Of a stretch of 64,000 bases of DNA, positions 50,869 through 64,000 are shown piece after piece. The stretch is taken from the NCBI GenBank assembly GCA_026014875.1, contig JAOZHO010000015.1:62001-126000 (forward strand), written 5' to 3'. A model generated the notes under the pieces. It did no database searches. It saw only the letters and a list, made by a program, of their open reading frames with translations, and was not told the origin of the DNA. Origin of the DNA: Candidatus Bathyarchaeota archaeon. Its GTDB lineage: Archaea > Thermoproteota > Bathyarchaeia > TCS64. Each line of letters opens with the position of its first letter. The stretch's first letter is position 1. Made by a program: the position numbers and the translations under genes.

Positions 50869-50970
50869 GGGAATCATTCATCCGGCGTCACAGGTTCTGG
50901 TTGATCGGGGCCAACAATCCATATTTTATTCCATAATTCATCGGATCTGGATCAAACCTATCATCCGAAT

Positions 50971-51012
50971 GGTGCGGGGGGTGGGACTCCCACCCAGATT
51001 TACTAGTAAAAG
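50971..51012. repeat. Repeat G with perfect GGGTGGGA/TCCCACCC hairpin
   Basis: GTGCGGGGGGTGGGACTCCC then ACCCAGATTTACTAGTAAAA. The inverted repeat at 50979-50995 (GGGTGGGA and TCCCACCC with a single base between) can form a hairpin; AGATTTACTAGTAAA follows. Belongs to the same family as B2, H and I. It lies just ahead of the island's first AT-rich gene. Confidence 0.5.
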
Positions 51013-51164
51013 GATAATTAGTTGTAGCGGATCCTTTCATTTCAATAAAATACCGAATGAAGGGTCATTTCTGTAGGAGTCTCGTGAATTCACGACAGGG
51101 ATACTACTCAAATCTCCCGCACATGAATAGCTAGTCTTAAGATAATTAGCCCCAAATATTGTCT

Positions 51165-52130
51165 ATGGAGACTCTGTTTTTCGATCAAAACTTACTTGGT
51201 GTTGCGCGATATTTAGAGAATAAAGGTACAAAAGTCCGCGATATAACTGAAATTTTAGGACATAAGGATACAAGGCAGGGCGTCCCCGACGATTCAATTA
51301 TCGATCATTTGAGAGACAAGTCTTCACTAATTTTGGTAACAAAAGATAAGGGACTGGCTAGGAAAGCACGAGAACATAATATCAAAGTCATTTTAATAGA
51401 CGAAACTGAGGTGCTTGCGACTGAGGTACTTTGCCGTATTGCTGCGCGAGTTCACACAATAGATGTGGAATCTATAATAGAATCACTTCAATCATTTTCA
51501 TCTGGTTATAGGTCTCGAAAATATGATGAACAATTCAACGACTTTTGGGTGTGGAAAAATCACGTCGAAAAAACAGAGTCAATTCTGGATGAAACCCATA
51601 TCGATGAGACATGGAATCGACTCCGAAAAATCCTCGGTGGTTGGCAGACATATCGAGGAACAAGAAACGAGTATCCTTACCGCGACCTGAAAAAGAGCTT
51701 GATCGATGTTGCTGAATCAATCAAAGTGTTGAACGAGTTCTCATTCCTAGATTTTTGGAAAATCCCTACAGAAAGTCTTGAAGATATATGGAACGCTCTG
51801 GGCAGGGTGAAGGAACCTGAAGGAAAAACGAACGAGGAGGGTAGGTATTTCGTCATAGCTGTATGTAAACCCCTGATGCTTCTATGGGGACAGACACTAG
51901 CTTTTGATCAACGTGTACGATTTTCTTTACCGCGTCAATTCGATGTCAGTATGGAAGATCGTAAATGGACATTTTCTAAATGGCACAGCGTAATGACATC
52001 AATCACAAAATGGGTGAAAAATCAACCTGATCTCGTAACATTTCTAGAGGAAGAATCAGCACGGAGATACGGTGAACAAATGAAGATACCCTATGGAAGA
52101 TTTCTGGACATTCACTTTTTTGAAAAATAA
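51165..52130 (+). CDS. PIN-like (DUF5615) N-terminal domain fused to unknown C-terminus
   Basis: 321 residues from ATG 51165 (TTG 51159 also possible). The first ~100 residues are PIN-like: METLFFDQNLLGVARYLENK, then LILVTKDKGLARKA and VILIDETEVLATEV. These put acidic residues D, D, D/E in the right positions for an RNase. The remaining 200 residues are helical and charged with no recognisable domain. AT-rich codon use; unlikely to be core. Likely a defence or toxin-like module. Confidence 0.6.
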   Translation: METLFFDQNLLGVARYLENKGTKVRDITEILGHKDTRQGVPDDSIIDHLRDKSSLILVTKDKGLARKAREHNIKVILIDETEVLATEVLCRIAARVHTIDVESIIESLQSFSSGYRSRKYDEQFNDFWVWKNHVEKTESILDETHIDETWNRLRKILGGWQTYRGTRNEYPYRDLKKSLIDVAESIKVLNEFSFLDFWKIPTESLEDIWNALGRVKEPEGKTNEEGRYFVIAVCKPLMLLWGQTLAFDQRVRFSLPRQFDVSMEDRKWTFSKWHSVMTSITKWVKNQPDLVTFLEEESARRYGEQMKIPYGRFLDIHFFEK

Positions 52131-52231: not shown

Positions 52232-52894
52232 TTAGATCGAAATATGTGCACGCCTATTGCATGCTTGGGTGGCGCTATTTTTTTCGATTATCACAGCTAT
52301 CCAGACATTTCGATGCTCGGTGTCAACCTTTGTAGGAAACTCAACAGGATTCCCTCGGGTTACTACATATGTTTTTTCTAACGTTTCTAGCGATTCGAGA
52401 TTTGGGTTTGAAACTGCAACAACTGCTACGACCTTGGCATTCTGTTTGAACCCATTTTTAATTCGAGTTCCTTTTCTATCGTCGGAAGTGATGGCTTTGA
52501 ATTCAAATTCCTGGAAATCACTTTTTGCTTTAGAGGAGTGTCTTATGCACCCAATATCAATCAGGTCGCCATAGAATACATCCTCAATGCCTTCCCCTGC
52601 AGCAACATTAACATTTACTAGGAATTTCTTCTTTCTTCGAATTGATTGAGAAAGTGCATCGAGTATTTTCTCATTCTTAGATTTACTGTGGCCGATTTCC
52701 TTTTCTTTGAATATTATTGTGGCTGTAAGACAAAATTTATTCTTATGAGTTGTAGAGGAGACTAATAGTTTTTGTAGAGTCATATTGGTTTTGGCGATAT
52801 CCTGCTGGATGAAGGAGTTGACCTCTTCTTCAAATCTAGATACAGCATGTGATTCCGAGGTGTTGGAGCTGTGAATTACTTTCACACGAACCAT
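52232..52894 (-). CDS. Hypothetical protein of the AT-rich island
   Basis: 220 residues starting ATG 52894 (MVRVKVIHSSNTSESHAVSR). No motif recognised; mixed alpha/beta with KFLVNVNVAAGEGIEDVFYG, then DIGCIRHSSKAKSDFQEFEF. Convergent with the PIN-like gene. Function unknown. Confidence 0.45.
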   Translation of the reverse strand: MVRVKVIHSSNTSESHAVSRFEEEVNSFIQQDIAKTNMTLQKLLVSSTTHKNKFCLTATIIFKEKEIGHSKSKNEKILDALSQSIRRKKKFLVNVNVAAGEGIEDVFYGDLIDIGCIRHSSKAKSDFQEFEFKAITSDDRKGTRIKNGFKQNAKVVAVVAVSNPNLESLETLEKTYVVTRGNPVEFPTKVDTEHRNVWIAVIIEKNSATQACNRRAHISI

Positions 52895-53126
52895 AATATA
52901 TCATAGACATCGATAGTAGTTATCAAGTTTTTTACATACTCGTAACCTTGACGAAGAAGGTATTCAAATCAAACTGGGTCATACGTTCCACCCTATATCA
53001 AACAAACTAGATGGTTCTCTCTAACCGTGATTGAACGAATGGGATTGTGCGTACACTTGCAAGCCTGATGATTAACATTCAGTAATAAATAGTTTTTATA
53101 TGAAAATATTCTAAATATCTATATAT

Positions 53127-53957
53127 ATGTCCCAGAAAGAAGAGAACTTCATAAATTTTGTGAGTTATTTGTGGGAAAAACATCCTGAATGTTTTACCAG
53201 TAATCCATGGACAGAGAGACTTGATGGGGAAGAATGGGCGTTCTCTGTGTTTTTAAGAACAATTATTTGGAATGATCCAGAATCAATCAAACTTTATAAG
53301 AAAATTCAAGGGTACAAGGGAACACTAGAGAAATATAGAACTCTGTCTCCGTCGCAATTCGAAGAATGGTTCGATGAGCAACAAAGTTCAATATTAATCG
53401 GTGGAAAGAACCAAGGAGGAGCTCATAGAAAACAGTTCCATAAAAAAGATAATCCTAGGGCATTGCGTAAATACTTGGATAAAACATCAATTGGTCAGAT
53501 AGACTTCTTTAAGGGTAAGAGTTTTGACCAGTTATATCAAGAAATAAAACAAATCCCTTCTATTGGGAAATTATTGTCATTCGATATTTTGAGTAGACTA
53601 GTACAAACAAGACATAATTATCTAGAACTCAATCCATTGAAAGCTTATGAAACTGGAGGGGGTCCTATCAAAGGCCTCCAAGCAATATATGGTAAAAGTC
53701 TTTCAAAACCCGAATTGATGGAACTATATCAACAACTGGGAGAAAAAATTCAAGTTGTCGCAGATATTCCACCAAGAATCTTTTGGTTTGAATTAGAGAA
53801 CATATTATGCATCTATCAGAAAAAAAATATCAAAGAAAAAAGTATGAAAATGTTGTCTGGACATCTAAATCCATTAAAGTATTCTCATTTATACGCCAAG
53901 GAATTCTGCTCAAGTGAGCGAGGATGTAATGACGACGCCCAGAACGAATGTTGTTGA
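53127..53957 (+). CDS. DNA-glycosylase-fold protein, similar to thymine-pyrophosphorylase (TOPP)-type proteins
   Basis: 276 residues. The segment IPSIGKLLSFDILSRLVQTR then GGGPIKGLQAIYGKS recalls alpha-glutamyl/putrescinyl thymine pyrophosphorylase proteins linked to hypermodified phage DNA (HhH-like glycine loop, then a GPG/GP-GL loop). I assign only the glycosylase fold with moderate confidence and the modified-base link as inference. It starts at ATG 53127; the next gene may contribute a reader-nuclease. AT-rich. Confidence 0.4.
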   Translation: MSQKEENFINFVSYLWEKHPECFTSNPWTERLDGEEWAFSVFLRTIIWNDPESIKLYKKIQGYKGTLEKYRTLSPSQFEEWFDEQQSSILIGGKNQGGAHRKQFHKKDNPRALRKYLDKTSIGQIDFFKGKSFDQLYQEIKQIPSIGKLLSFDILSRLVQTRHNYLELNPLKAYETGGGPIKGLQAIYGKSLSKPELMELYQQLGEKIQVVADIPPRIFWFELENILCIYQKKNIKEKSMKMLSGHLNPLKYSHLYAKEFCSSERGCNDDAQNECC

Positions 53958-54134
53958 ACGCACGGGATTATTTGTGAAATAAATACCAAGGGGGATCTAA
54001 ATATCTTCTATGATCAGAGTATTCCCTCTTTTACTCGCACACGTGACCCGTGGATATATCTCCCGTCTCTCTCCCCTTTATTTGGCAAGGCTGGATGTTA
54101 AAATCTTAATAATGTTGTAGTTTAAATAATAATT

Positions 54135-55151
54135 ATGCCAAAATTCTTAACATTTTCACCAACGCACGTCTCTGGTGAAAAAGAAAATGCATGGAACCAT
54201 TTTCTCGCTGGTGGGTACATAGCTATCGGTTGGATTTGGGGAGATGACCTTTCAGGGAAATCGATTGAAAAAGTCGTTGAAATAATTCAAATGCATGCTT
54301 ACGCTAATGAGGCATATGCTATAGAGGCTTTTACTAAATTTCTTGCTCTTGAAAAAGGAGATTATATTGCGATTAATAATACAAATGATGGTCTATTTGG
54401 TATTGGCATTATTACCTCCGAATATAAATATGAACCTGATAAACATCCTACAGGTGGCGACGAAAAAAATTTTTACTCGCATTATCGAGATGTAGATTGG
54501 ATTTACACCAATTATGTGAAAAGAAAAGATGTGATCAATCCCGGAGAAAAAGGTTGGAAACCATATGGAACGGTAGGAAGTATGCTTGAAGAAGTTCCTC
54601 CCTATATCAAAAGGATTATAGGGGAAGAATTGCCGAAAGAAACTCCTGACGAAGTAATTCGACCAGAAAAGTATCTTGGAGTTATTGAATCTATTGAACG
54701 ATTAAAAAATGATCAAAATCATTCTGAAAGAGATCATGAATCATTAGTGGAACATTTTCTTGTTGCACTTGGTTATGGTGGGAATCAAGAAATTAAATAT
54801 CGTCGAGGTCGTATTGATGTCGCAATAAGTATGGATGATAATATTGTGGTAATTATAGAGGTAAAAAAGGATTGGAATTTAAATGCTCAATATTATCCAC
54901 AAGTTGTTCAACAAGGATATATGTATGCTTTAGATCAAGGAGTAAGATATGTTCTTATTACGAATGGTGATTATTACGCAATTTTTGATCGATTAAAAGG
55001 CTTATCGACCACCACAAATTTAATTGGTGAATTCAGACTCAGTTCTTTGAAAAACGAAGATTTAGAAATAATCAATATTTTATCGCCCGAAAAAATGAAT
55101 AAACCTGATCTGAAGGACCTTTTCCAAAATCTATCAGAAAATTTTCCATAA
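54135..55151 (+). CDS. Predicted modified-base reader fused to PD-(D/E)XK nuclease
   Basis: 338 residues. The N-terminal ~150 residues (GGYIAIGWIWGDDL, then IEAFTKFLALEKGDYIAINN) have a PUA/EVE-like look (W-rich start with GDYIAI strands). The C-terminal half has the PD-(D/E)XK core RRGRIDVAISMDDNIVVIIE then VKKDW (D, then E-x-K), preceded by an acidic helix HESLVEHFLVALGYGG. Fusions of a base-reader to such a nuclease are known for type IV-like restriction; substrate here is inferred. Confidence 0.55.
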   Translation: MPKFLTFSPTHVSGEKENAWNHFLAGGYIAIGWIWGDDLSGKSIEKVVEIIQMHAYANEAYAIEAFTKFLALEKGDYIAINNTNDGLFGIGIITSEYKYEPDKHPTGGDEKNFYSHYRDVDWIYTNYVKRKDVINPGEKGWKPYGTVGSMLEEVPPYIKRIIGEELPKETPDEVIRPEKYLGVIESIERLKNDQNHSERDHESLVEHFLVALGYGGNQEIKYRRGRIDVAISMDDNIVVIIEVKKDWNLNAQYYPQVVQQGYMYALDQGVRYVLITNGDYYAIFDRLKGLSTTTNLIGEFRLSSLKNEDLEIINILSPEKMNKPDLKDLFQNLSENFP

Positions 55152-56557: not shown

Positions 56558-57061
56558 TTACTCGAACTCTATTTTTCCTTCGTTGTCGATCCTGGCTACA
56601 AGCCATTCATATTTGCTATTCTCAATAGACGTTTTGGCTTGTTCTCGTAGCCTGTTTATCATCGGATTCTCGAGCTTTTTTGATAAGAAAATAAGATCCG
56701 TGATTTCTTTAGACTTGTTCATATCCTGGAACACAAGGAAATCTACAGGATTTAAAACAGGTTTAATGTCACTTGGGTCAAATTTCATTCTTCGAAAGTC
56801 CTGTTTAATCGCATTGTTGAACACCACCTCAGCCTGTCTTCTACCCTCAGCCCTCGCAGCCTCCCGCAGCTCACCCTTAACCGCGTCAAACTCAGCCTCC
56901 CTACCACTGAGAAGCCTCTCCCTATACTCGTAGTAATCCAGCCAGGTATTCTCAGTCTCAGCCTTCGTCTTCAACTTCAAATCGGAGAGACGGACAATTT
57001 TTCCGCAATCTGGGCAGACGCAGAGTATCTTTCTGAACTCTTGAAACTCCTCGAGCGCCAT
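56558..57061 (-). CDS. Degenerate Holliday-resolvase-like endonuclease paralogue (Endonuc_Holl family)
   Basis: About 167 residues from ATG 57061, overlapping the stop of the upstream paralogue (TGATG). N-terminal zinc-like CVCPDCGKIVRLSDLK. The nuclease-fold segment KPVLNPVDFLVFQDMNKSKE then LIFLSKKLENPM keeps the leading D but has FLSKK where the active paralogue has the E-x-K (FIEVKSG). Probably a catalytically impaired partner subunit. Confidence 0.65.
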   Translation of the reverse strand: MALEEFQEFRKILCVCPDCGKIVRLSDLKLKTKAETENTWLDYYEYRERLLSGREAEFDAVKGELREAARAEGRRQAEVVFNNAIKQDFRRMKFDPSDIKPVLNPVDFLVFQDMNKSKEITDLIFLSKKLENPMINRLREQAKTSIENSKYEWLVARIDNEGKIEFE

Positions 57062-57537
57062 CAAAACACCCTGTACTTAACCCGATTATCCTCGACTGCC
57101 TCTTTGACCAGTTTCTGGTGCTTGTTTAACCTCGCTTTTCCGCTCTTGACTTCGATGAAGCTGATGGAGTCTATGTTATTCTCGGATAAGCCGTTGAATG
57201 TGAGTAGATCGATGGGGTCGCCGAGGAATCTGCAGTCAGGTAATTGCCATTTGAAATCCTCCATCATTGGGAGGATTTTTTCCAGAGTTTTTCCGATGTT
57301 GACCGATCTTGTTGTGATGGTGGCTTTCTCAGTGGTTAGTTTCTTATTTTTTTCTAGTTTTGCATTTCGCTCCCGTAGTTCTTCTTCGTATCGTTCCTGG
57401 ATCTCTAGTACCTCGGGTGGGAATGGCTTGGTTCCGTCGAATAGTAGTAGGTCTGATAGCTTGTGCTCAGCTCCGCATGGACATTCTGCATAAAGGTCGG
57501 ATTTCTTGAGGCGATCAATAATTTTCTGAGTGCTCAA
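57061..57537 (-). CDS. Holliday-resolvase-like endonuclease (Endonuc_Holl, PF10107-type)
   Basis: 158 residues with the nuclease core CRFLGDPIDLLTFNGLSENN then SISFIEVKSGKARLN and HQKLVKEAVEDNRVKYRVF. The GDPID / E-x-K pattern is intact and a Cys pair CPCGAEHKLSD is present. The N-terminal half is a coiled-coil. Coupled to its degenerate paralogue; suggests a heteromeric nuclease. Confidence 0.85.
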   Translation of the reverse strand: MSTQKIIDRLKKSDLYAECPCGAEHKLSDLLLFDGTKPFPPEVLEIQERYEEELRERNAKLEKNKKLTTEKATITTRSVNIGKTLEKILPMMEDFKWQLPDCRFLGDPIDLLTFNGLSENNIDSISFIEVKSGKARLNKHQKLVKEAVEDNRVKYRVF

Positions 57538-57544
57538 ATGGAGT

Positions 57545-58621
57545 TCACATTACCTTATTTCGTTCTTGCGTCAACTCTTGTAAGAACTGAATGAATTTTC
57601 TTGCTTCAGGCATCTTGATATACCCGGTATAACCGGACCATTGTTCAAGAATATCCCTTTCTGCATAACTCTTCTGATCACCGGGTGTTCCATACCTCCA
57701 TGGTTCTCGGTCTGAAGGAAGAATTGATAACAACTTCTCCTCACTGATATTGAAATATTCTCTAAATCTTAGATCATAGAGCTGCCAACGAAGACCATGT
57801 TCTGAGTCGCTGTCGGTTGGAATTAAATTAAATATCGCGGATCTTTTCGTTTCCCTGAATTCTCCCGTAAATGCAATTGAACTCCTTGTCCTATTTGTAC
57901 CGCGGAGATACTGCTGCAGCTCATTAAACAAATATGAATAGACTTCGCCTACGCCTCTTTCATCTGAAATCTCTTGGAGTTGCTCATATGTTAAGTTAGG
58001 TCTTCTCTTTGAACTAGTGCTCGGAGTAACCGGTACTCGAGACGGTTCAATCAAGAAAGTACGTGCAAGAAATTCATCTTTGCCTTCCTTGAAATAATTG
58101 AATGTAATCGCATTAATGGCTACTCTATAATTTTCTGACAAATAGTTGATAATCCGTTGGCTGCTACTATCAATCTTGGAACCAACAACAAGCATTCTAA
58201 GTTCCTCGTTAATAGATTCAGGAAGACTTTGATTGAATTTAGTTTGATAAGCTTCTTCAAAACTCACATTTTTCAAGTATCTCTCAGCAATTCTCTGTAC
58301 TTTTTCAGGTGAGAGGTGTTTTACCCATGAAGCATAATCGAGAACTTGAGCGGTAATCTCTCGGGGGGTTTTATCTCTTTTTAGTTCTATAATGATGAGG
58401 TCTCCTTTCTCATCGATGCATAGTAAGTCGATTACTCCACCATAATCGGTTTCACATTGTCTATCGATAACGAGGAGATTCTGTGCTATAATTGAAATAT
58501 CTGAGGCGATCCAACTTTCTAAACGCTCTTCGAGATCTAGTTTTGGTTTATGAATTTCTTCTAGTGTGTTCTTCTTAATTTTCCAAAGTCTTACTTCAGG
58601 TGTACCGGTATTAGTTTGCAT
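57545..58621 (-). CDS. NucS/DUF91-like PD-(D/E)XK nuclease protein
   Basis: 358 residues. The nuclease core is DYGGVIDLLCIDEKGDLIII then ELKRDKTPREI, with LDYASWVKHLSPEKVQRIAE as the flanking helix (D, E-x-K intact). It resembles NucS-type nucleases at the core only; the C-terminal 150 residues (from EISDERGVGEVYSYLFNELQ) are unfamiliar. Seven bp separate it from the resolvase-like gene, so a three-gene operon is likely. Confidence 0.75.
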   Translation of the reverse strand: MQTNTGTPEVRLWKIKKNTLEEIHKPKLDLEERLESWIASDISIIAQNLLVIDRQCETDYGGVIDLLCIDEKGDLIIIELKRDKTPREITAQVLDYASWVKHLSPEKVQRIAERYLKNVSFEEAYQTKFNQSLPESINEELRMLVVGSKIDSSSQRIINYLSENYRVAINAITFNYFKEGKDEFLARTFLIEPSRVPVTPSTSSKRRPNLTYEQLQEISDERGVGEVYSYLFNELQQYLRGTNRTRSSIAFTGEFRETKRSAIFNLIPTDSDSEHGLRWQLYDLRFREYFNISEEKLLSILPSDREPWRYGTPGDQKSYAERDILEQWSGYTGYIKMPEARKFIQFLQELTQERNKVM

Positions 58622-58869: not shown

Positions 58870-59304
58870 TTAGTCGTAGTCTTGTAAGCGAACATTATAC
58901 CACTGTAACTGTTCACCTTGTCTCAATCCTTTTAAAGGAACTTGAACCCGGATACCATCGCTTCGTATTAAAGGAATGAGATTCTCTCGGTACTCCAACC
59001 CTGCATGAAAAAAAATCTCACTAATTTCCTTAAAATCTAACTTGTCTTTAAGCTGCTTGTACACTCTTTCTGCCCACTGCTTCTTCTCTTTTCTCCTCAT
59101 GGTCTTGAGAGTCTGCTCATAGGGTTCAATAACTTCATGGGGTAAGAGCAGACCGTGTTTAGCACTAATGATGGCTACCTTGTCGTATTGTTCAATGGCA
59201 AAGTCATAGGCTTTTGAGAAGAGCGCTGATGGCTGATACATCTCCTCCGCTCTGCAGGGGTAGTTTTGCTTCGACTTTGAACAGCTTATTAATCCCAGTT
59301 TCAT
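58870..59304 (-). CDS. DUF6884-family protein
   Basis: About 144 residues from ATG 59304, beginning MKLGLISCSKSKQNYPCRAE then MYQPSALFSKAYDFA. The KHGLLLPHEVIEPYEQTL motif is characteristic. Members occur in phage/defence contexts; catalytic role uncertain. Divergent from the glycosylase gene at 59346. Confidence 0.75.
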   Translation of the reverse strand: MKLGLISCSKSKQNYPCRAEEMYQPSALFSKAYDFAIEQYDKVAIISAKHGLLLPHEVIEPYEQTLKTMRRKEKKQWAERVYKQLKDKLDFKEISEIFFHAGLEYRENLIPLIRSDGIRVQVPLKGLRQGEQLQWYNVRLQDYD

Positions 59305-59345
59305 ATCCTGCCTCAATTTTCATATACGGCTAAATCATATTTAGA

Positions 59346-60332
59346 ATGAGTGTCTTGAAGGCTATCTGCTCCCGCTGCGAGATTGAATACACAGTTGATG
59401 AATATCAAAAAGACCGATTCTGCAAAAATTGCGGGGCACATCTCAAGCTAGTGACGTCACCGATTGTAAGAAAAGCAGACTTTGAAGGAGAAAATGACGA
59501 CCGTTTCATGTACGATACTATCTTGGCCACATCCATCGGCAGGGTACTTCATGATCAATTCCAGAACAAAACAGGTTACTTTGAAGGACATGTGATGCCC
59601 GAATACATACCCCCCTCAATCGATGAAGGAAGCAGAGAGTTGGCCCTATACTACACATTTGTAATTGCTGTTGATTATCAGACAGATGCTCATAAGCTAT
59701 GGAGAAACGCGAGGCGTCTTTACAGTCAGAGTCCTGAGTATTTTGAACCAGAGAACATCATTAATGTCTCCGATGATGAGTTGAAAGCCTTTGTAAGGAG
59801 CCTCGGAGCCCGGTTCCCCAATAATGGAGCAAAGGCCTGGAAGGATATTTCAAGGATTTTAATCAGGCAATATGATGGGGACCCACGTAACATTACACGG
59901 GAGCCGCTGACCTCGAGAGAGGTGTGGAGGAGGCTGGATAAGTTTCCTTACATCAGGGGAAAGAAGATAGGAACGCTATATCTCAGGGTCATGGGGGATC
60001 TTGGTCTTTTCAAGATCTCGGACCTAGATCAGCTTGACGTGGCGGTTGATGTCCAGGTGTCCCGCTTCACGTTCTATACGGGAGTTCTCACTCCATTAGA
60101 GGCGATGACGGGGTGTGTGCATAATCCTCCGATTAAACCTGCGATTGAACGGGTGTGGAGGCAAGCTGCGAAAAGTGTTGGGTGTGCTCCTTGGCAGTTG
60201 GATATGCCGATGTGGGTCATTGCATCTAAACAGTGTACGGGAAAGTGGTGCGATCCATGTCCTGTAAATGAACTCTGTAAACAGAATTTTGATGCTAGCA
60301 TTCAAGGAAATAACCTATCGTATAGACCTTGA
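59346..60332 (+). CDS. HhH-GPD glycosylase-like protein with 4Fe-4S cluster and N-terminal zinc ribbon
   Basis: 328 residues: N-terminal zinc ribbon CSRCEIEY and CKNCGAHL; core with FPYIRGKKIGTLYLRVMGDL (HhH) and LDVAVDVQVSRFTF (catalytic Asp position of HhH-GPD); C-terminal cluster ligands CTGKWCDPCPVNELC (C-x4-C-x2-C-x5-C). Similar in plan to endonuclease III or an excision glycosylase for a modified base. Followed by an exonuclease, which fits a repair or base-editing pathway. Confidence 0.65.
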   Translation: MSVLKAICSRCEIEYTVDEYQKDRFCKNCGAHLKLVTSPIVRKADFEGENDDRFMYDTILATSIGRVLHDQFQNKTGYFEGHVMPEYIPPSIDEGSRELALYYTFVIAVDYQTDAHKLWRNARRLYSQSPEYFEPENIINVSDDELKAFVRSLGARFPNNGAKAWKDISRILIRQYDGDPRNITREPLTSREVWRRLDKFPYIRGKKIGTLYLRVMGDLGLFKISDLDQLDVAVDVQVSRFTFYTGVLTPLEAMTGCVHNPPIKPAIERVWRQAAKSVGCAPWQLDMPMWVIASKQCTGKWCDPCPVNELCKQNFDASIQGNNLSYRP

Positions 60333-61163: not shown

Positions 61164-63662
61164 TTAGATTTTTAATGGTTCTAATAATTCGAGCAGTTCT
61201 TCTCTGGTCCATCCTGCGAAACCACCGGTGGCGCTAAGCACCGAATCAGCAATTCCCCGCTTTTTTTCCAATATCTTTTCTATTCGTTCCTCAAGAGTTC
61301 CTTCAGTTAATACATGGTGAACAAACACTGTCTTCTTCTGACCAATACGATGAACTCGGTCCGTGGCCTGATCCTCAACCGCTGGATTCCACCAACGATC
61401 AACATGTAAAACATGATTAGCACCGGTCAATGTTATCCCCTGACCAGCAGCAAGCAAACTACACAGAGCAACATTAATCTCCTGTTCATTGAAACGGTCA
61501 ATCAACTCCTGTCTATTGCGAGTCGAACCATCAATACGGATATAACTAAGGCCAGCTTCCACAACAAATCGTTCGAACAAATCAAGAGTTCCTAGGAAGT
61601 GACTGAAAAGCACTACCTGATCCTCACTATCAACAATTTCTTGTATCTTCTCACAAAAAATATCGAATTTCTCTGATCTACCGTGAATAGGCGTCTTATT
61701 CCCAGTTATTAGAGCGGGGTGATCACAAACCTGTTTTAATTTTGTTATTATCGCTAAAATGTTTATTCGACTAACATTCACGCCTTTCTGAAGAGATACG
61801 CGAATTGGATTTACGTTTAAATCTTGTATTTGCCCATATAGAGCCCTCTGCTCCGTGGTCAAACTACAGGTACCATTCATGGGAATCTTATCTGGAAGGT
61901 CTTTAGCAACGTCTTTCTTTAATCGACGTAGAACAAAGGGGTTAATCCGTTTAGCCAGATACTTTGCTTTTTCTTGGTCCCCGTCAATGATTGGTTTCTC
62001 GATTTTTGAGACGAAGCCACCATAAGAGCCAAGATGCCCCTTCATCAGGAAATCAAAGAGAGACCACAACTCTGCAGGCCGATTCTCTATGGGGGTACCA
62101 CTTAACACGAATCTGTGAGCGGCATTCAAACTCTTAATAGCCTTGCTTCGCTTTGCCTGAGGGTTCTTAATTCGAGTCCCTTCATCAAGAATCAGGTAAT
62201 AGAAAGGAACCTTCTGCAATATCTCCACATCATTAGTCGCAGTTGCGTACGTCGTAATGAATATTCGAGGATTTTTACTGAAGAATAGTTTACTGTTTCG
62301 CATTGGTCCATGATAAATTTTAATACGAGCGTCAACCCACGCTTTTCTAATTTCTCGCTCCCAGAAACGTAACACTGAACGAGGACAAATAATCAGACTA
62401 TGGTGATCGGGGTTTTCTTCATAATAGTTTAACCGCATGTTAATTATAGATTGAATAGTTTTCCCGAGCCCCATATCATCAGCAAGAATACCATGGAGAT
62501 AATGGTCAGAAAGCCAGTTCAACCATTGAATACCTGCTCTCTGATAACCTCTCAAATCGATGCCATTACTTACCAGAGTTTTTTCAAGATCATCGGGAAG
62601 TCTATAATCGAAATCAAACTCAAAACCAGTTAATTCATCCTCAAATCGTTGATACTCTTCTGAAACGCTCTTTAGACCACCAATATGAGCAATGAGCTCC
62701 TCTAACGACTGGAACTTTGTAATATCTGTCCGTAACCCATCTTTGTCGAATTGCACACCAAGTTCATTCAATTGTTCCTGTAGTTCCTTGATCTGGTTTT
62801 CATCGTACTTCGCCCACGTTTTATCACCAATTTTGACATATCCGTTCTTACCATTCTGAAACAAGTCAAGAGGAAGAATATGTTCTCCAATTTGATAATT
62901 CACAACAAAGTCAAGCCAACCCTTGTCTCCCATGTTAAGGGAGAATAAAGGAACCATTTCCTCGTCTAAAACTTCAAAGGTCTCAATTCCTCCGAGGAGT
63001 ACTGCGTTGAAATTCAGTTTTAGGAACGCCAGGTCTCGTTTTAAAAACTCTGGAATGTCTATATCGGGTATGTAGAATTGTTCAGAGTCTATATACTTTC
63101 GAATTTGATCGTTTTCCTCGACTGGAGTCAGGTAAAACTCGTTCTCAATTCGTGAATACTCTGGGTCAGGTGTACTTTGGAGGTCGCCTTTTAGTATTAA
63201 TTCGTCTTTTCCTTTTCGTTGATATCCAATTTCGCCTTCAATTCCTTCGTTTTGAGTATACGATAATTTTGCGACTCTAGGCAATGGCTTTTCATGAATA
63301 ATGATTTCATTGGATGCTTCTGTTTCTTCGATTTTTTCTTTCTCTCTTAGATAATTGAGAACGGACGGATATACCTGGGAAGTGATTACTCCTTCCTCAG
63401 TGATTTTAGCGTTAAGTGCTCTTAATGCGAGTAGAGTATCAAAGTCGTCTCGGGATAATACGTGTTTGATCTTGTCTGTTTCCCAGATGAATCCATGTCT
63501 CCATAAAGCATTCACGTCTCGGACAGGCGTTCGGCTATCTTCTTCGAACCTGTATACTCTGATTTCGTTTAACCCTTCCTGGTAATCTACTTCAAATTCT
63601 AATGATATTGGGATTATCTGGACGCCTTGGAACCATGAGATGACTCGTGAAATGAGGCTCAT
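61164..63662 (-). CDS. SNF2-family helicase/translocase
   Basis: 832 residues from ATG 63662, overlapping the stop of the partner gene (ATGA). Helicase motifs: I LADDMGLGKTIQS, II LILDEGTRIKNPQAKRSKAI, III-IV FVLSGTPIENRPAELWSLFD, V-VI LLAAGQGITLTGANHV and QATDRVHRIGQKKT. The first ~350 residues are an unusual N-terminal region without known domains. SNF2 enzymes remodel or restrict DNA; in defence islands they often pair with a nuclease or unknown partner. Confidence 0.9.
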   Translation of the reverse strand: MSLISRVISWFQGVQIIPISLEFEVDYQEGLNEIRVYRFEEDSRTPVRDVNALWRHGFIWETDKIKHVLSRDDFDTLLALRALNAKITEEGVITSQVYPSVLNYLREKEKIEETEASNEIIIHEKPLPRVAKLSYTQNEGIEGEIGYQRKGKDELILKGDLQSTPDPEYSRIENEFYLTPVEENDQIRKYIDSEQFYIPDIDIPEFLKRDLAFLKLNFNAVLLGGIETFEVLDEEMVPLFSLNMGDKGWLDFVVNYQIGEHILPLDLFQNGKNGYVKIGDKTWAKYDENQIKELQEQLNELGVQFDKDGLRTDITKFQSLEELIAHIGGLKSVSEEYQRFEDELTGFEFDFDYRLPDDLEKTLVSNGIDLRGYQRAGIQWLNWLSDHYLHGILADDMGLGKTIQSIINMRLNYYEENPDHHSLIICPRSVLRFWEREIRKAWVDARIKIYHGPMRNSKLFFSKNPRIFITTYATATNDVEILQKVPFYYLILDEGTRIKNPQAKRSKAIKSLNAAHRFVLSGTPIENRPAELWSLFDFLMKGHLGSYGGFVSKIEKPIIDGDQEKAKYLAKRINPFVLRRLKKDVAKDLPDKIPMNGTCSLTTEQRALYGQIQDLNVNPIRVSLQKGVNVSRINILAIITKLKQVCDHPALITGNKTPIHGRSEKFDIFCEKIQEIVDSEDQVVLFSHFLGTLDLFERFVVEAGLSYIRIDGSTRNRQELIDRFNEQEINVALCSLLAAGQGITLTGANHVLHVDRWWNPAVEDQATDRVHRIGQKKTVFVHHVLTEGTLEERIEKILEKKRGIADSVLSATGGFAGWTREELLELLEPLKI

Positions 63663-64000
63663 GGGTAGTTCTCCGATAATGTTTTGAACCATAGAGGCAT
63701 TGTTCGCCACTCTGGGAAACTACCCAGAAGGTATTCTGTTACAATTTGTGAGGCCTCTTGATCGCCGTTATATGAGGTGACGAAGGTGGAAGGTTTTACT
63801 ATGTTTAATTTGTCAAGTTCGAGTTCCACTGTTTTCTGTAATCTGTTTTTTGGGTTGTATTCATTCGTTATACTGTTGATTTTTCGATTTGCGTCTCGGA
63901 TCTTTTTTGAATATTCGTTTCGGATGGATTGTTTACCTTGAAATTCGCCTCTTAATCGCTGGGGTAGTTTTCTTCGAGTGCGAGAAATCCACTGCTGAAT
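63659..64000 (-). CDS. Unidentified partner of SNF2 helicase (C-terminal part, cut by window edge)
   Basis: The frame is open from the window edge to TGA at 63659-63661, giving 113 visible residues. They are basic and helical (IRNEYSKKIRDANRKINSIT) and end VTEYLLGSFPEW, then WFKTLSENYP. ATGA overlap with the SNF2 gene shows strict coupling. No domain recognised from this part; the rest lies outside the window. Confidence 0.6.
   Translation of the reverse strand: MQQWISRTRRKLPQRLRGEFQGKQSIRNEYSKKIRDANRKINSITNEYNPKNRLQKTVELELDKLNIVKPSTFVTSYNGDQEASQIVTEYLLGSFPEWRTMPLWFKTLSENYP

What the first reader, a model, noticed from the sequence alone, without database searches (positions are those of the whole stretch)
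54135..55151. Predicted base-reader/PD-(D/E)XK fusion beside a glycosylase-fold protein
Seen: C-terminal nuclease core (D, E-x-K), and an N-terminal W/G-rich beta region with EVE/PUA-like spacing. The gene before it (53127) has a glycosylase-like glycine pattern resembling thymine pyrophosphorylase-type proteins. Established: EVE-type readers fused to nucleases can act against modified DNA. Inference: the two genes may act against, or process, modified phage DNA.
Basis: partly seen in the sequence, partly recalled or inferred. Interest (0 to 1): 0.75.

Follow-up and report, generated by a model that had tools for sequence, protein, structure and literature searches.

The report
Modified-DNA nuclease beside glycosylase-fold protein
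On a mobile genetic element inserted in an archaeal chromosome, one gene encodes what looks like an enzyme that recognises chemically altered (viral) DNA and cuts it, and the gene before it encodes a distant, probably base-handling relative of the enzymes phages use to decorate thymine, so the pair is a plausible piece of anti-virus defence, although nothing shows that the two genes work together.

Summary
gp54135 (338 aa) has an N-terminal domain resembling PUA-superfamily modified-base readers (EVE/YTH/ASCH) and a C-terminal PD-(D/E)XK nuclease (D228, E242-x-K244). It matches PADLOC candidate family PDC-S02 (6.7e-13). gp53127 (276 aa) exceeds Pfam cut-offs for ADDT and HMUDK_hel, aligns along its whole length with phage HMUDK_hel, and its model ranks a phage 5-phosphomethyl-dU glycinyltransferase first, then AlkA, MutY and OGG1. 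It is a divergent helix-hairpin-helix glycosylase-fold protein. It lacks the Asp/Glu/Arg residues conserved in phage relatives and has no kinase partner on the element, so its chemistry is unknown. Both genes lie inside a ~35.8-kb integrative element in tRNA-Leu (22-bp direct repeats, integrase) that also carries an Hma-like system. They are 177 bp apart with separate TATA-like boxes; a 60%-identical gp54135 relative elsewhere has no gp53127 partner; and no gp53127 relative was found in my genome and virus searches. Interesting parts in a defence-type setting; a two-gene system is unproven.

The parts
54135..55151 (+). gp54135, 338 aa: predicted modified-base reader + PD-(D/E)XK nuclease fusion (PDC-S02 family)
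54135..54632 (+). N-terminal domain, residues 1-166: PUA-superfamily (EVE/YTH/ASCH-like) reader, inferred
   Evidence: hhalign to EVE 72%; Foldseek/VIA best matches 6yex, YTHDF2, 1zce, MJECL36, PH1033, 3iuw over residues 1-128; model pLDDT 40
54633..55151 (+). C-terminal PD-(D/E)XK nuclease domain, D228, E242-x-K244
   Evidence: Pfam DUF7149, HSDR_N_2 over cut-off; motif conserved in G032 relative
53127..53957 (+). gp53127, 276 aa: divergent helix-hairpin-helix glycosylase-fold protein of the HMUDK_hel/ADDT superfamily
53093..53102 (+). TATA-box-like element TTTTTATATG about 29 bp upstream of the gp53127 ATG (leaderless-type archaeal promoter, inferred)
   Evidence: sequence
54104..54112 (+). 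TATA-box-like element TCTTAATAA about 27 bp upstream of the gp54135 ATG (own promoter, inferred)
   Evidence: sequence
50968..50989 (+). left attachment-site repeat AATGGTGCGGGGGGTGGGACTC, identical to the tRNA-Leu 3' end at contig C24:148769-148790; left edge of the ~35.8-kb integrative element
   Evidence: GC drop at the same place
51159..52130 (+). PIN/Mut7-C-like protein at the left end of the element
   Evidence: weak Pfam Mut7-C 0.0021, below cut-off
52232..52894 (-). 220-aa protein of unknown family between the att repeat and gp53127
   Evidence: no family
57545..58621 (-). NucS_C-like PD-(D/E)XK nuclease, PDC-S11 candidate defence gene
   Evidence: PADLOC 9.8e-71, NucS_C

Best explanation
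The window's right-hand part is the left portion of a ~35.8-kb integrative mobile element inserted in a tRNA-Leu gene of an archaeon, and it carries defence-type cargo. gp54135 is a modification-dependent (type IV-like) restriction endonuclease: its N-terminal PUA-superfamily domain recognises a modified base in incoming DNA and its C-terminal PD-(D/E)XK domain cuts the DNA (fold and motif supported by comparison; binding, base identity and cutting inferred). gp53127 is a stand-alone, divergent member of the helix-hairpin-helix glycosylase-fold superfamily used by phages for thymine hypermodification. Lacking a kinase partner on the element and the acidic residues invariant in phage HMUDK_hel proteins, it most likely engages (flips) modified bases as an independent defence factor, either excising them or acting as a sensor, rather than building a hypermodified base (inferred). 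The two genes are probably separate cargo genes that share a target class, not one system.
For: gp54135: PDC-S02 6.7e-13 over 21-280; PD-(D/E)XK domain above Pfam cut-offs; reader domain shared with an McrB-type protein, phmmer 6.3e-6, and PDC-S02 nucleases; EVE hhalign 72%; the EVE-HNH enzyme VcaM4I is the first Foldseek match, with YTH, EVE and ASCH chains over residues 1-128 and restriction/Holliday-junction nucleases over about 190-300. gp53127: Pfam; PWT27-29, F39, R44, D50, HhH hairpin IPSIGK with G147, G177-x-G179-x-I-x-G183-L184, E224-xxx-C228-xxx-K232 shared with phage HMUDK_hel; hhalign 89%/P 2e-6 and 27.9 vs shuffle maximum 14.1; VIA-align: PUGT 8z2n Z 7.4 (191 residues, 4.2 A), then AlkA 5.9/5.4, MutY 4.2, OGG1 4.2; BFVD best match is a phage '5-hmdU DNA kinase helical domain' protein. 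Element: 22-bp att repeats and integrase beside tRNA-Leu, GC 35-45% versus 55-62%, Hma-like ATPase-methylase-helicase genes, other PDC genes. Published: a system with a 5-hydroxymethyluracil kinase domain is experimentally anti-phage and aGPT-Pplase is a predicted defence domain (PMC13092281); base-excising anti-phage glycosylases exist (PMC13160076); EVE-PD-(D/E)XK is a known architecture (PMC7641849).
Against: The gp54135 model is poor (pLDDT 40, pTM 0.32, two sequences), so its structure matches have low TM-scores. gp53127 has R157, N169, I229, I235 where phage HMUDK_hel have D (33/33), D (30/33), E (33/33), R (32/33), so catalysis may be lost or different. A profile from phage HMUDK_hel alone scored gp53127 barely above shuffles with plain hmmsearch (7.9 vs 7.2 bits). 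Z 7.4 for a helical model is within the range the tool warns about, although the nine top rows are all one fold. No experiment of any kind.
Confidence: 0.6

Rival explanations
1. The two genes form one two-component system against hypermodified DNA: gp53127 excises or strips the modified base (as BapA/Brig3 do for 5hmC) and gp54135 reads the modified base and cuts nearby.
For: Adjacent, same strand, both in the same 35%-GC segment, each with a fold for handling modified DNA; a two-gene precedent exists in Brig3-BapA.
Against: 177-bp gap with a separate TATA-like box before each gene; the 60%-identical gp54135 relative in G032 has no gp53127 partner; gp53127 not found near any PDC-S02 relative fetched, within 1.5-kb flanks.
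Confidence: 0.12
2. gp53127 is a DNA hypermodification enzyme of the mobile element, used to modify the element's own or a virus's DNA (counter-defence).
For: Its nearest named families (HMUDK_hel, ADDT, aGPT-Pplase) are phage hypermodification proteins, and the best PDB match is a glycinyltransferase acting on 5-PmdU in DNA.
Against: No phage-type P-loop kinase gene on the element, although it directly precedes HMUDK_hel in M6-like phages (20 of 77 loci); no thymidylate-synthase-like hydroxymethylase was recognised among the element genes scanned; conserved acidic residues missing; the element's own gp54135 would threaten modified DNA (inference).
Confidence: 0.17
3. gp53127 is a degenerate, non-catalytic base-flipping domain that only senses modified bases or regulates a partner.
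For: Loss of D157, D169, E229, R235 equivalents with retention of structural motifs.
Against: E224 and C228-xxx-K232, conserved across HMUDK_hel and largely in ADDT, are retained; the role of those residues is not known to me.
Confidence: 0.25
4. gp54135 is an ordinary Mrr/HsdR-type nuclease whose N-terminal domain binds sequence rather than a modified base.
For: C-domain relatives are HsdR_N/Mrr; a relative sits beside a type I restriction gene, HsdR in L134.
Against: The N-domain recurs on an McrB-type protein and resembles EVE/YTH/ASCH readers.
Confidence: 0.2

Closest known systems
PDC-S02 (PADLOC candidate single-gene defence family; relatives here have an N-terminal reader-like domain and an Mrr- or NucS-like nuclease)
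   Same: HMM match 6.7e-13 across both domains, same two-domain order
   Different: Only ~20% identical to the archaeal members fetched; C-domain closer to DUF7149/HSDR_N_2 than to Mrr_cat
EVE-PD-(D/E)XK and EVE-HNH modification-dependent restriction enzymes (e.g. VcaM4I, PMC7897488; Bell et al. 2020, PMC7641849)
   Same: PUA-superfamily-like reader N-terminal to a nuclease; VcaM4I is the first structural match
   Different: No Pfam EVE match; nuclease is PD-(D/E)XK, not the HNH of VcaM4I
HMUDK_hel, 5-hmdU DNA kinase helical domain proteins of phages M6, ViI, phiW-14
   Same: Full-length alignment, HhH hairpin, GxGxIxGL and ExxxCxxxK motifs
   Different: No P-loop kinase partner gene; D157, D169, E229, R235 equivalents absent; 276 aa versus roughly 290-420
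ADDT / PUGT 5-phosphomethyl-dU glycinyltransferase (8z2m, 8z2n; PaMx11 gp46)
   Same: Best structural match Z 7.4 over 191 residues; Pfam ADDT over cut-off
   Different: No profile-profile match to phage ADDT sequences (score 1.6)
HhH DNA glycosylases (AlkA, MutY, OGG1)
   Same: Fold family, Z 4-6
   Different: No recognisable catalytic Asp at the aligned position (N169); no FeS-type Cys cluster after the fold core
Brig1/Brig3-BapA anti-phage glycosylase systems (PMC13160076)
   Same: Idea: base handling as anti-phage defence
   Different: Brig proteins are uracil-DNA-glycosylase superfamily, not HhH

Membership tests
PD-(D/E)XK nuclease | D...ExK catalytic motif in a recognised PD-(D/E)XK family | tested here: met
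   D228, E242-x-K244; DUF7149 and HSDR_N_2 above cut-off for the isolated domain; conserved in G032 relative
PDC-S02 candidate defence family | PADLOC HMM match over both domains | tested here: met
   PDLC04806 6.7e-13, residues 21-280
EVE domain proper (PF01878) | Pfam EVE match above cut-off | tested here: not met
   no match in own genome or protein
PUA/EVE/YTH/ASCH reader superfamily | PUA-type beta-barrel fold | tested here: inconclusive
   hhalign 72% to EVE; EVE/YTH/ASCH chains dominate residues 1-128, but model pLDDT 40
Modification-dependent restriction endonuclease (type IV) | cleaves modified, not unmodified DNA | not testable with these tools
   biochemistry needed
HMUDK_hel/ADDT/aGPT superfamily (HhH glycosylase-type fold) | significant profile match and fold | tested here: met
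   two Pfam models above cut-off; hhalign 27.9 vs shuffle max 14.1; PUGT and HhH glycosylases fill the nine top VIA rows
HMUDK_hel (phage 5-hmdU DNA kinase helical protein) | residues invariant in 33 phage relatives (D157, E229) and near-invariant R235, D169 | tested here: not met
   R, I, I, N in gp53127
HMUDK_hel (phage 5-hmdU DNA kinase helical protein) | P-loop kinase gene alongside (seen in M6-like phages) | tested here: not met
   none in the element; the only hit on the contig stretch searched is C24:97578-98237 (window 35578), outside the element
ADDT amino acid:DNA transferase | profile similarity to characterised phage ADDT | tested here: inconclusive
   Pfam ADDT over cut-off and PUGT top by structure, but no hhalign match to 24 phage ADDT sequences
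HhH-GPD DNA glycosylase | catalytic Asp downstream of the HhH hairpin | tested here: inconclusive
   aligned position is N169; the alignment is to HMUDK_hel, not to a glycosylase structure
Two-gene defence system gp53127-gp54135 | conserved co-occurrence of the two genes | tested here: inconclusive
   one 60% relative of gp54135 found, without gp53127; gp53127 unique in 398 phylum genomes and by pattern scans of GTDB, so there was almost nothing to count

The most novel reading that the evidence does not exclude
gp53127 is a new class of anti-virus base-excision (or base-stripping) enzyme, built on the phage thymine-hypermodification HhH fold and turned against hypermodified thymine in archaeal virus DNA, with gp54135 cutting the same modified DNA: phage-type hypermodification biochemistry repurposed as immunity in an archaeal mobile element.
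Probability: 0.12. Interest if true: 0.75.

Novelty: new variant of a known kind. Interest (0 to 1): 0.45.

Why it matters
If gp53127 acts on modified bases, it would extend a superfamily known mainly from phage DNA hypermodification into archaeal defence cargo, without the kinase it accompanies in M6-like phages. That makes a general question testable: whether this fold can be used for immunity, as the anti-phage system with a 5-hmdU kinase domain reported in PMC13092281 hints. It would also hint that archaeal viruses carry hypermodified thymine-type bases. gp54135 itself would be one more modification-dependent nuclease.

Tried and rejected
gp53127 relatives: tblastn in phages and plasmids, none even at E 10 in phages; pattern scans of IMG/VR (15, 68) and GTDB (18, 67), none; 32 order and 398 phylum genomes, only itself. 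These scans are motif-limited, so absence is weak. gp54135: no phage match, one weak plasmid C-domain match, none in IMG/VR (16, 74). Foldseek alone found nothing significant for gp53127; only the VIA second look did. An hmmsearch with a phage-only HMUDK_hel HMM was at noise level; hhalign with the same alignment was not. Comparison to phage ADDT by hhalign failed. The idea that gp53127 belongs to a hypermodification operon was tested and not supported. Uracil-DNA-glycosylase-type (Brig) identity was not pursued: Brig3 is another fold.

Full report
Observation. Both ORFs exist exactly as described: 53127-53957 (276 aa) and 54135-55151 (338 aa), both on the + strand.

Setting. GC falls from 55-62% to about 35-45% at window position ~50.9 kb. 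Reading on past the window end, I found a tyrosine integrase at C24:147239-148216 next to a tRNA-Leu at C24:148771-148856. A 22-bp exact direct repeat, AATGGTGCGGGGGGTGGGACTC, occurs at the tRNA end (C24:148769-148790) and at window 50968-50989, right at the GC drop (BLAST E 6e-7 within the contig). The region is therefore a ~35.8-kb integrative element. It carries a D5-like primase, an N6/N4 DNA methylase, a HATPase-domain protein, and a DUF499 ATPase + DUF1156 methylase + SNF2/NOV_C helicase set. PADLOC recognises that set as HmaC/HmaB/HmaA-like; it resembles the archaeal COG1743-DUF499-SWI2/SNF2 system described in PMC7641849 and Hma of PMC8565338. Near the finding are further PADLOC candidates: PDC-S11 (NucS-like, 57545-58621), PDC-M57A (DUF6884, 58870-59316) and an SNF2 helicase with DpdE/ZorD similarity (61164-63710). 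This is mobile, defence-type cargo.

gp54135. PADLOC PDC-S02 matches residues 21-280 at 6.7e-13. The isolated C-terminal half exceeds the Pfam cut-offs for DUF7149 and HSDR_N_2, with D228 and E242-x-K244. The N-terminal domain has no Pfam name but recurs in an McrB-type protein of the same phylum (L022, phmmer 6.3e-6) and in Mrr- and NucS-type nucleases. Its GD-hairpin aligns with EVE domains at 72% hhalign probability, against 1% for the unrelated A8 profile. Yet the first Foldseek match among 350,542 PDB chains is VcaM4I, an EVE-HNH restriction enzyme, followed by many YTH domains and the EVE protein 1zce, mixed with cap-snatching endonucleases. VIA-align lists MJECL36, PH1033, VcaM4I, an ASCH protein and Mmi1/YTHDF2 over residues 1-128, and Hjc, Cas4-type, splicing-endonuclease and type II restriction nucleases over ~190-300, together with some unrelated folds such as pyrophosphatases. 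I infer a modification-dependent restriction endonuclease; the modified base is unknown.

gp53127. Pfam gives ADDT 28.4 bits (cut-off 26.2), HMUDK_hel 26.5 (25) and aGPT-Pplase3 23.5 (25). Phage members were collected from M6, phiW-14 and ViI and 77 IMG/VR loci. gp53127 aligns over its whole length with HMUDK_hel, sharing PWT27-29, F39, R44, D50, a helix-hairpin-helix turn (IPSIGK, G147), G177-x-G179-x-I-x-G183-L184 and E224-xxx-C228-xxx-K232. hhalign of gp53127 alone to HMUDK_hel gives 89% and P 2e-6, with gp54135 as negative control at 0.3%; a second run scores 27.9 against a maximum of 14.1 over 150 shuffles. The AlphaFold2 model (34 sequences, pLDDT 65.5, core ~85) is all-helical. VIA-align ranks the 5-PmdU glycinyltransferase PUGT first (Z 7.4 and 7.0), then AlkA, MutY and OGG1. 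Z 7.4 is not decisive for a helical model, but all nine top rows are this one fold, and BFVD's best match is a phage HMUDK_hel protein. I conclude gp53127 is a divergent member of this superfamily. It is not an HMUDK_hel or ADDT in the strict sense: positions invariant or nearly so in 33 phage relatives (D157, D169, E229, R235) are R, N, I, I. Also, the P-loop kinase gene that directly precedes HMUDK_hel in M6-like phages (20 of 77 loci with a simple HMM) has no counterpart on the element.

Do the genes act together? Evidence is thin. They are 177 bp apart; TTTTTATATG lies 29 bp before one ATG and TCTTAATAA 27 bp before the other, as expected for separate leaderless archaeal transcripts (inference from sequence only). 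The closest gp54135 relative, 60% and 55% identical in its two halves in G032, is broken into two frames and stands alone in an ordinary chromosomal region. gp53127 has no detectable relative in 32 order-level or 398 phylum-level genomes, nor in pattern scans of GTDB and IMG/VR confirmed against gp53127 itself, so co-occurrence could hardly be tested.

How it probably works. gp54135: the reader domain recognises a modified base in invading DNA and the PD-(D/E)XK domain cuts (steps inferred from fold and family). gp53127: engages a flipped, probably thymine-derived, modified base; excision, group transfer or pure sensing cannot be told apart from sequence. Published precedents make a defence role reasonable: a system with a 5-hydroxymethyluracil kinase domain is experimentally anti-phage and aGPT-Pplase is predicted defensive (PMC13092281), and anti-phage glycosylases Brig1/Brig3 exist on a different fold (PMC13160076).

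Verdict. gp54135 is a new member of a known kind; gp53127 is an unusual variant of a known kind in an unexpected setting.

Noticed in passing
window 50968-50989 and contig C24:148769-148790: 22-bp exact direct repeat between the GC drop and the 3' end of tRNA-Leu beside an integrase: bounds of a ~35.8-kb integrative element.
   Followed up: yes
C24:126678-135108 (L004:2679-11109): DUF499 ATPase, DUF1156 DNA methylase and SNF2/NOV_C helicase, an Hma-like system, with a 131-aa gene in between.
   Followed up: partly
window 59346-60332: A second predicted HhH-GPD-type glycosylase (TIGR03252/Nth/AGOG-like, weak) with N-terminal zinc ribbon and a C-x4-C-x2-C-x5-C cluster, divergent from a DUF6884 (PDC-M57A) gene and followed by a PolB-exonuclease-like gene.
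   Followed up: partly
window 56558-57537: Two tandem Holliday-junction-endonuclease-related proteins (Endonuc_Holl), one strong and one weak match, next to a NucS-like PDC-S11 gene.
   Followed up: no
C24:140026-142747 (L004:16027-18748): Neighbouring genes, one with a HATPase domain, that look by eye like a small topoisomerase VI-type pair on the mobile element; the other has no Pfam hit.
   Followed up: no
window 61164-63710: SNF2 helicase with strong DpdE/ZorD similarity (6e-118) but no other Dpd or Zorya genes recognised nearby.
   Followed up: no
L047:10328-11106 (G032:C22:90327-91105): The 60%-identical relative of gp54135 is split into two overlapping frames and lacks the middle (~residues 127-204): a decaying copy.
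   Followed up: partly
L161:1483-2373: An archaeal EVE protein with a C-terminal nuclease-like segment, another EVE-PD-(D/E)XK candidate.
   Followed up: no
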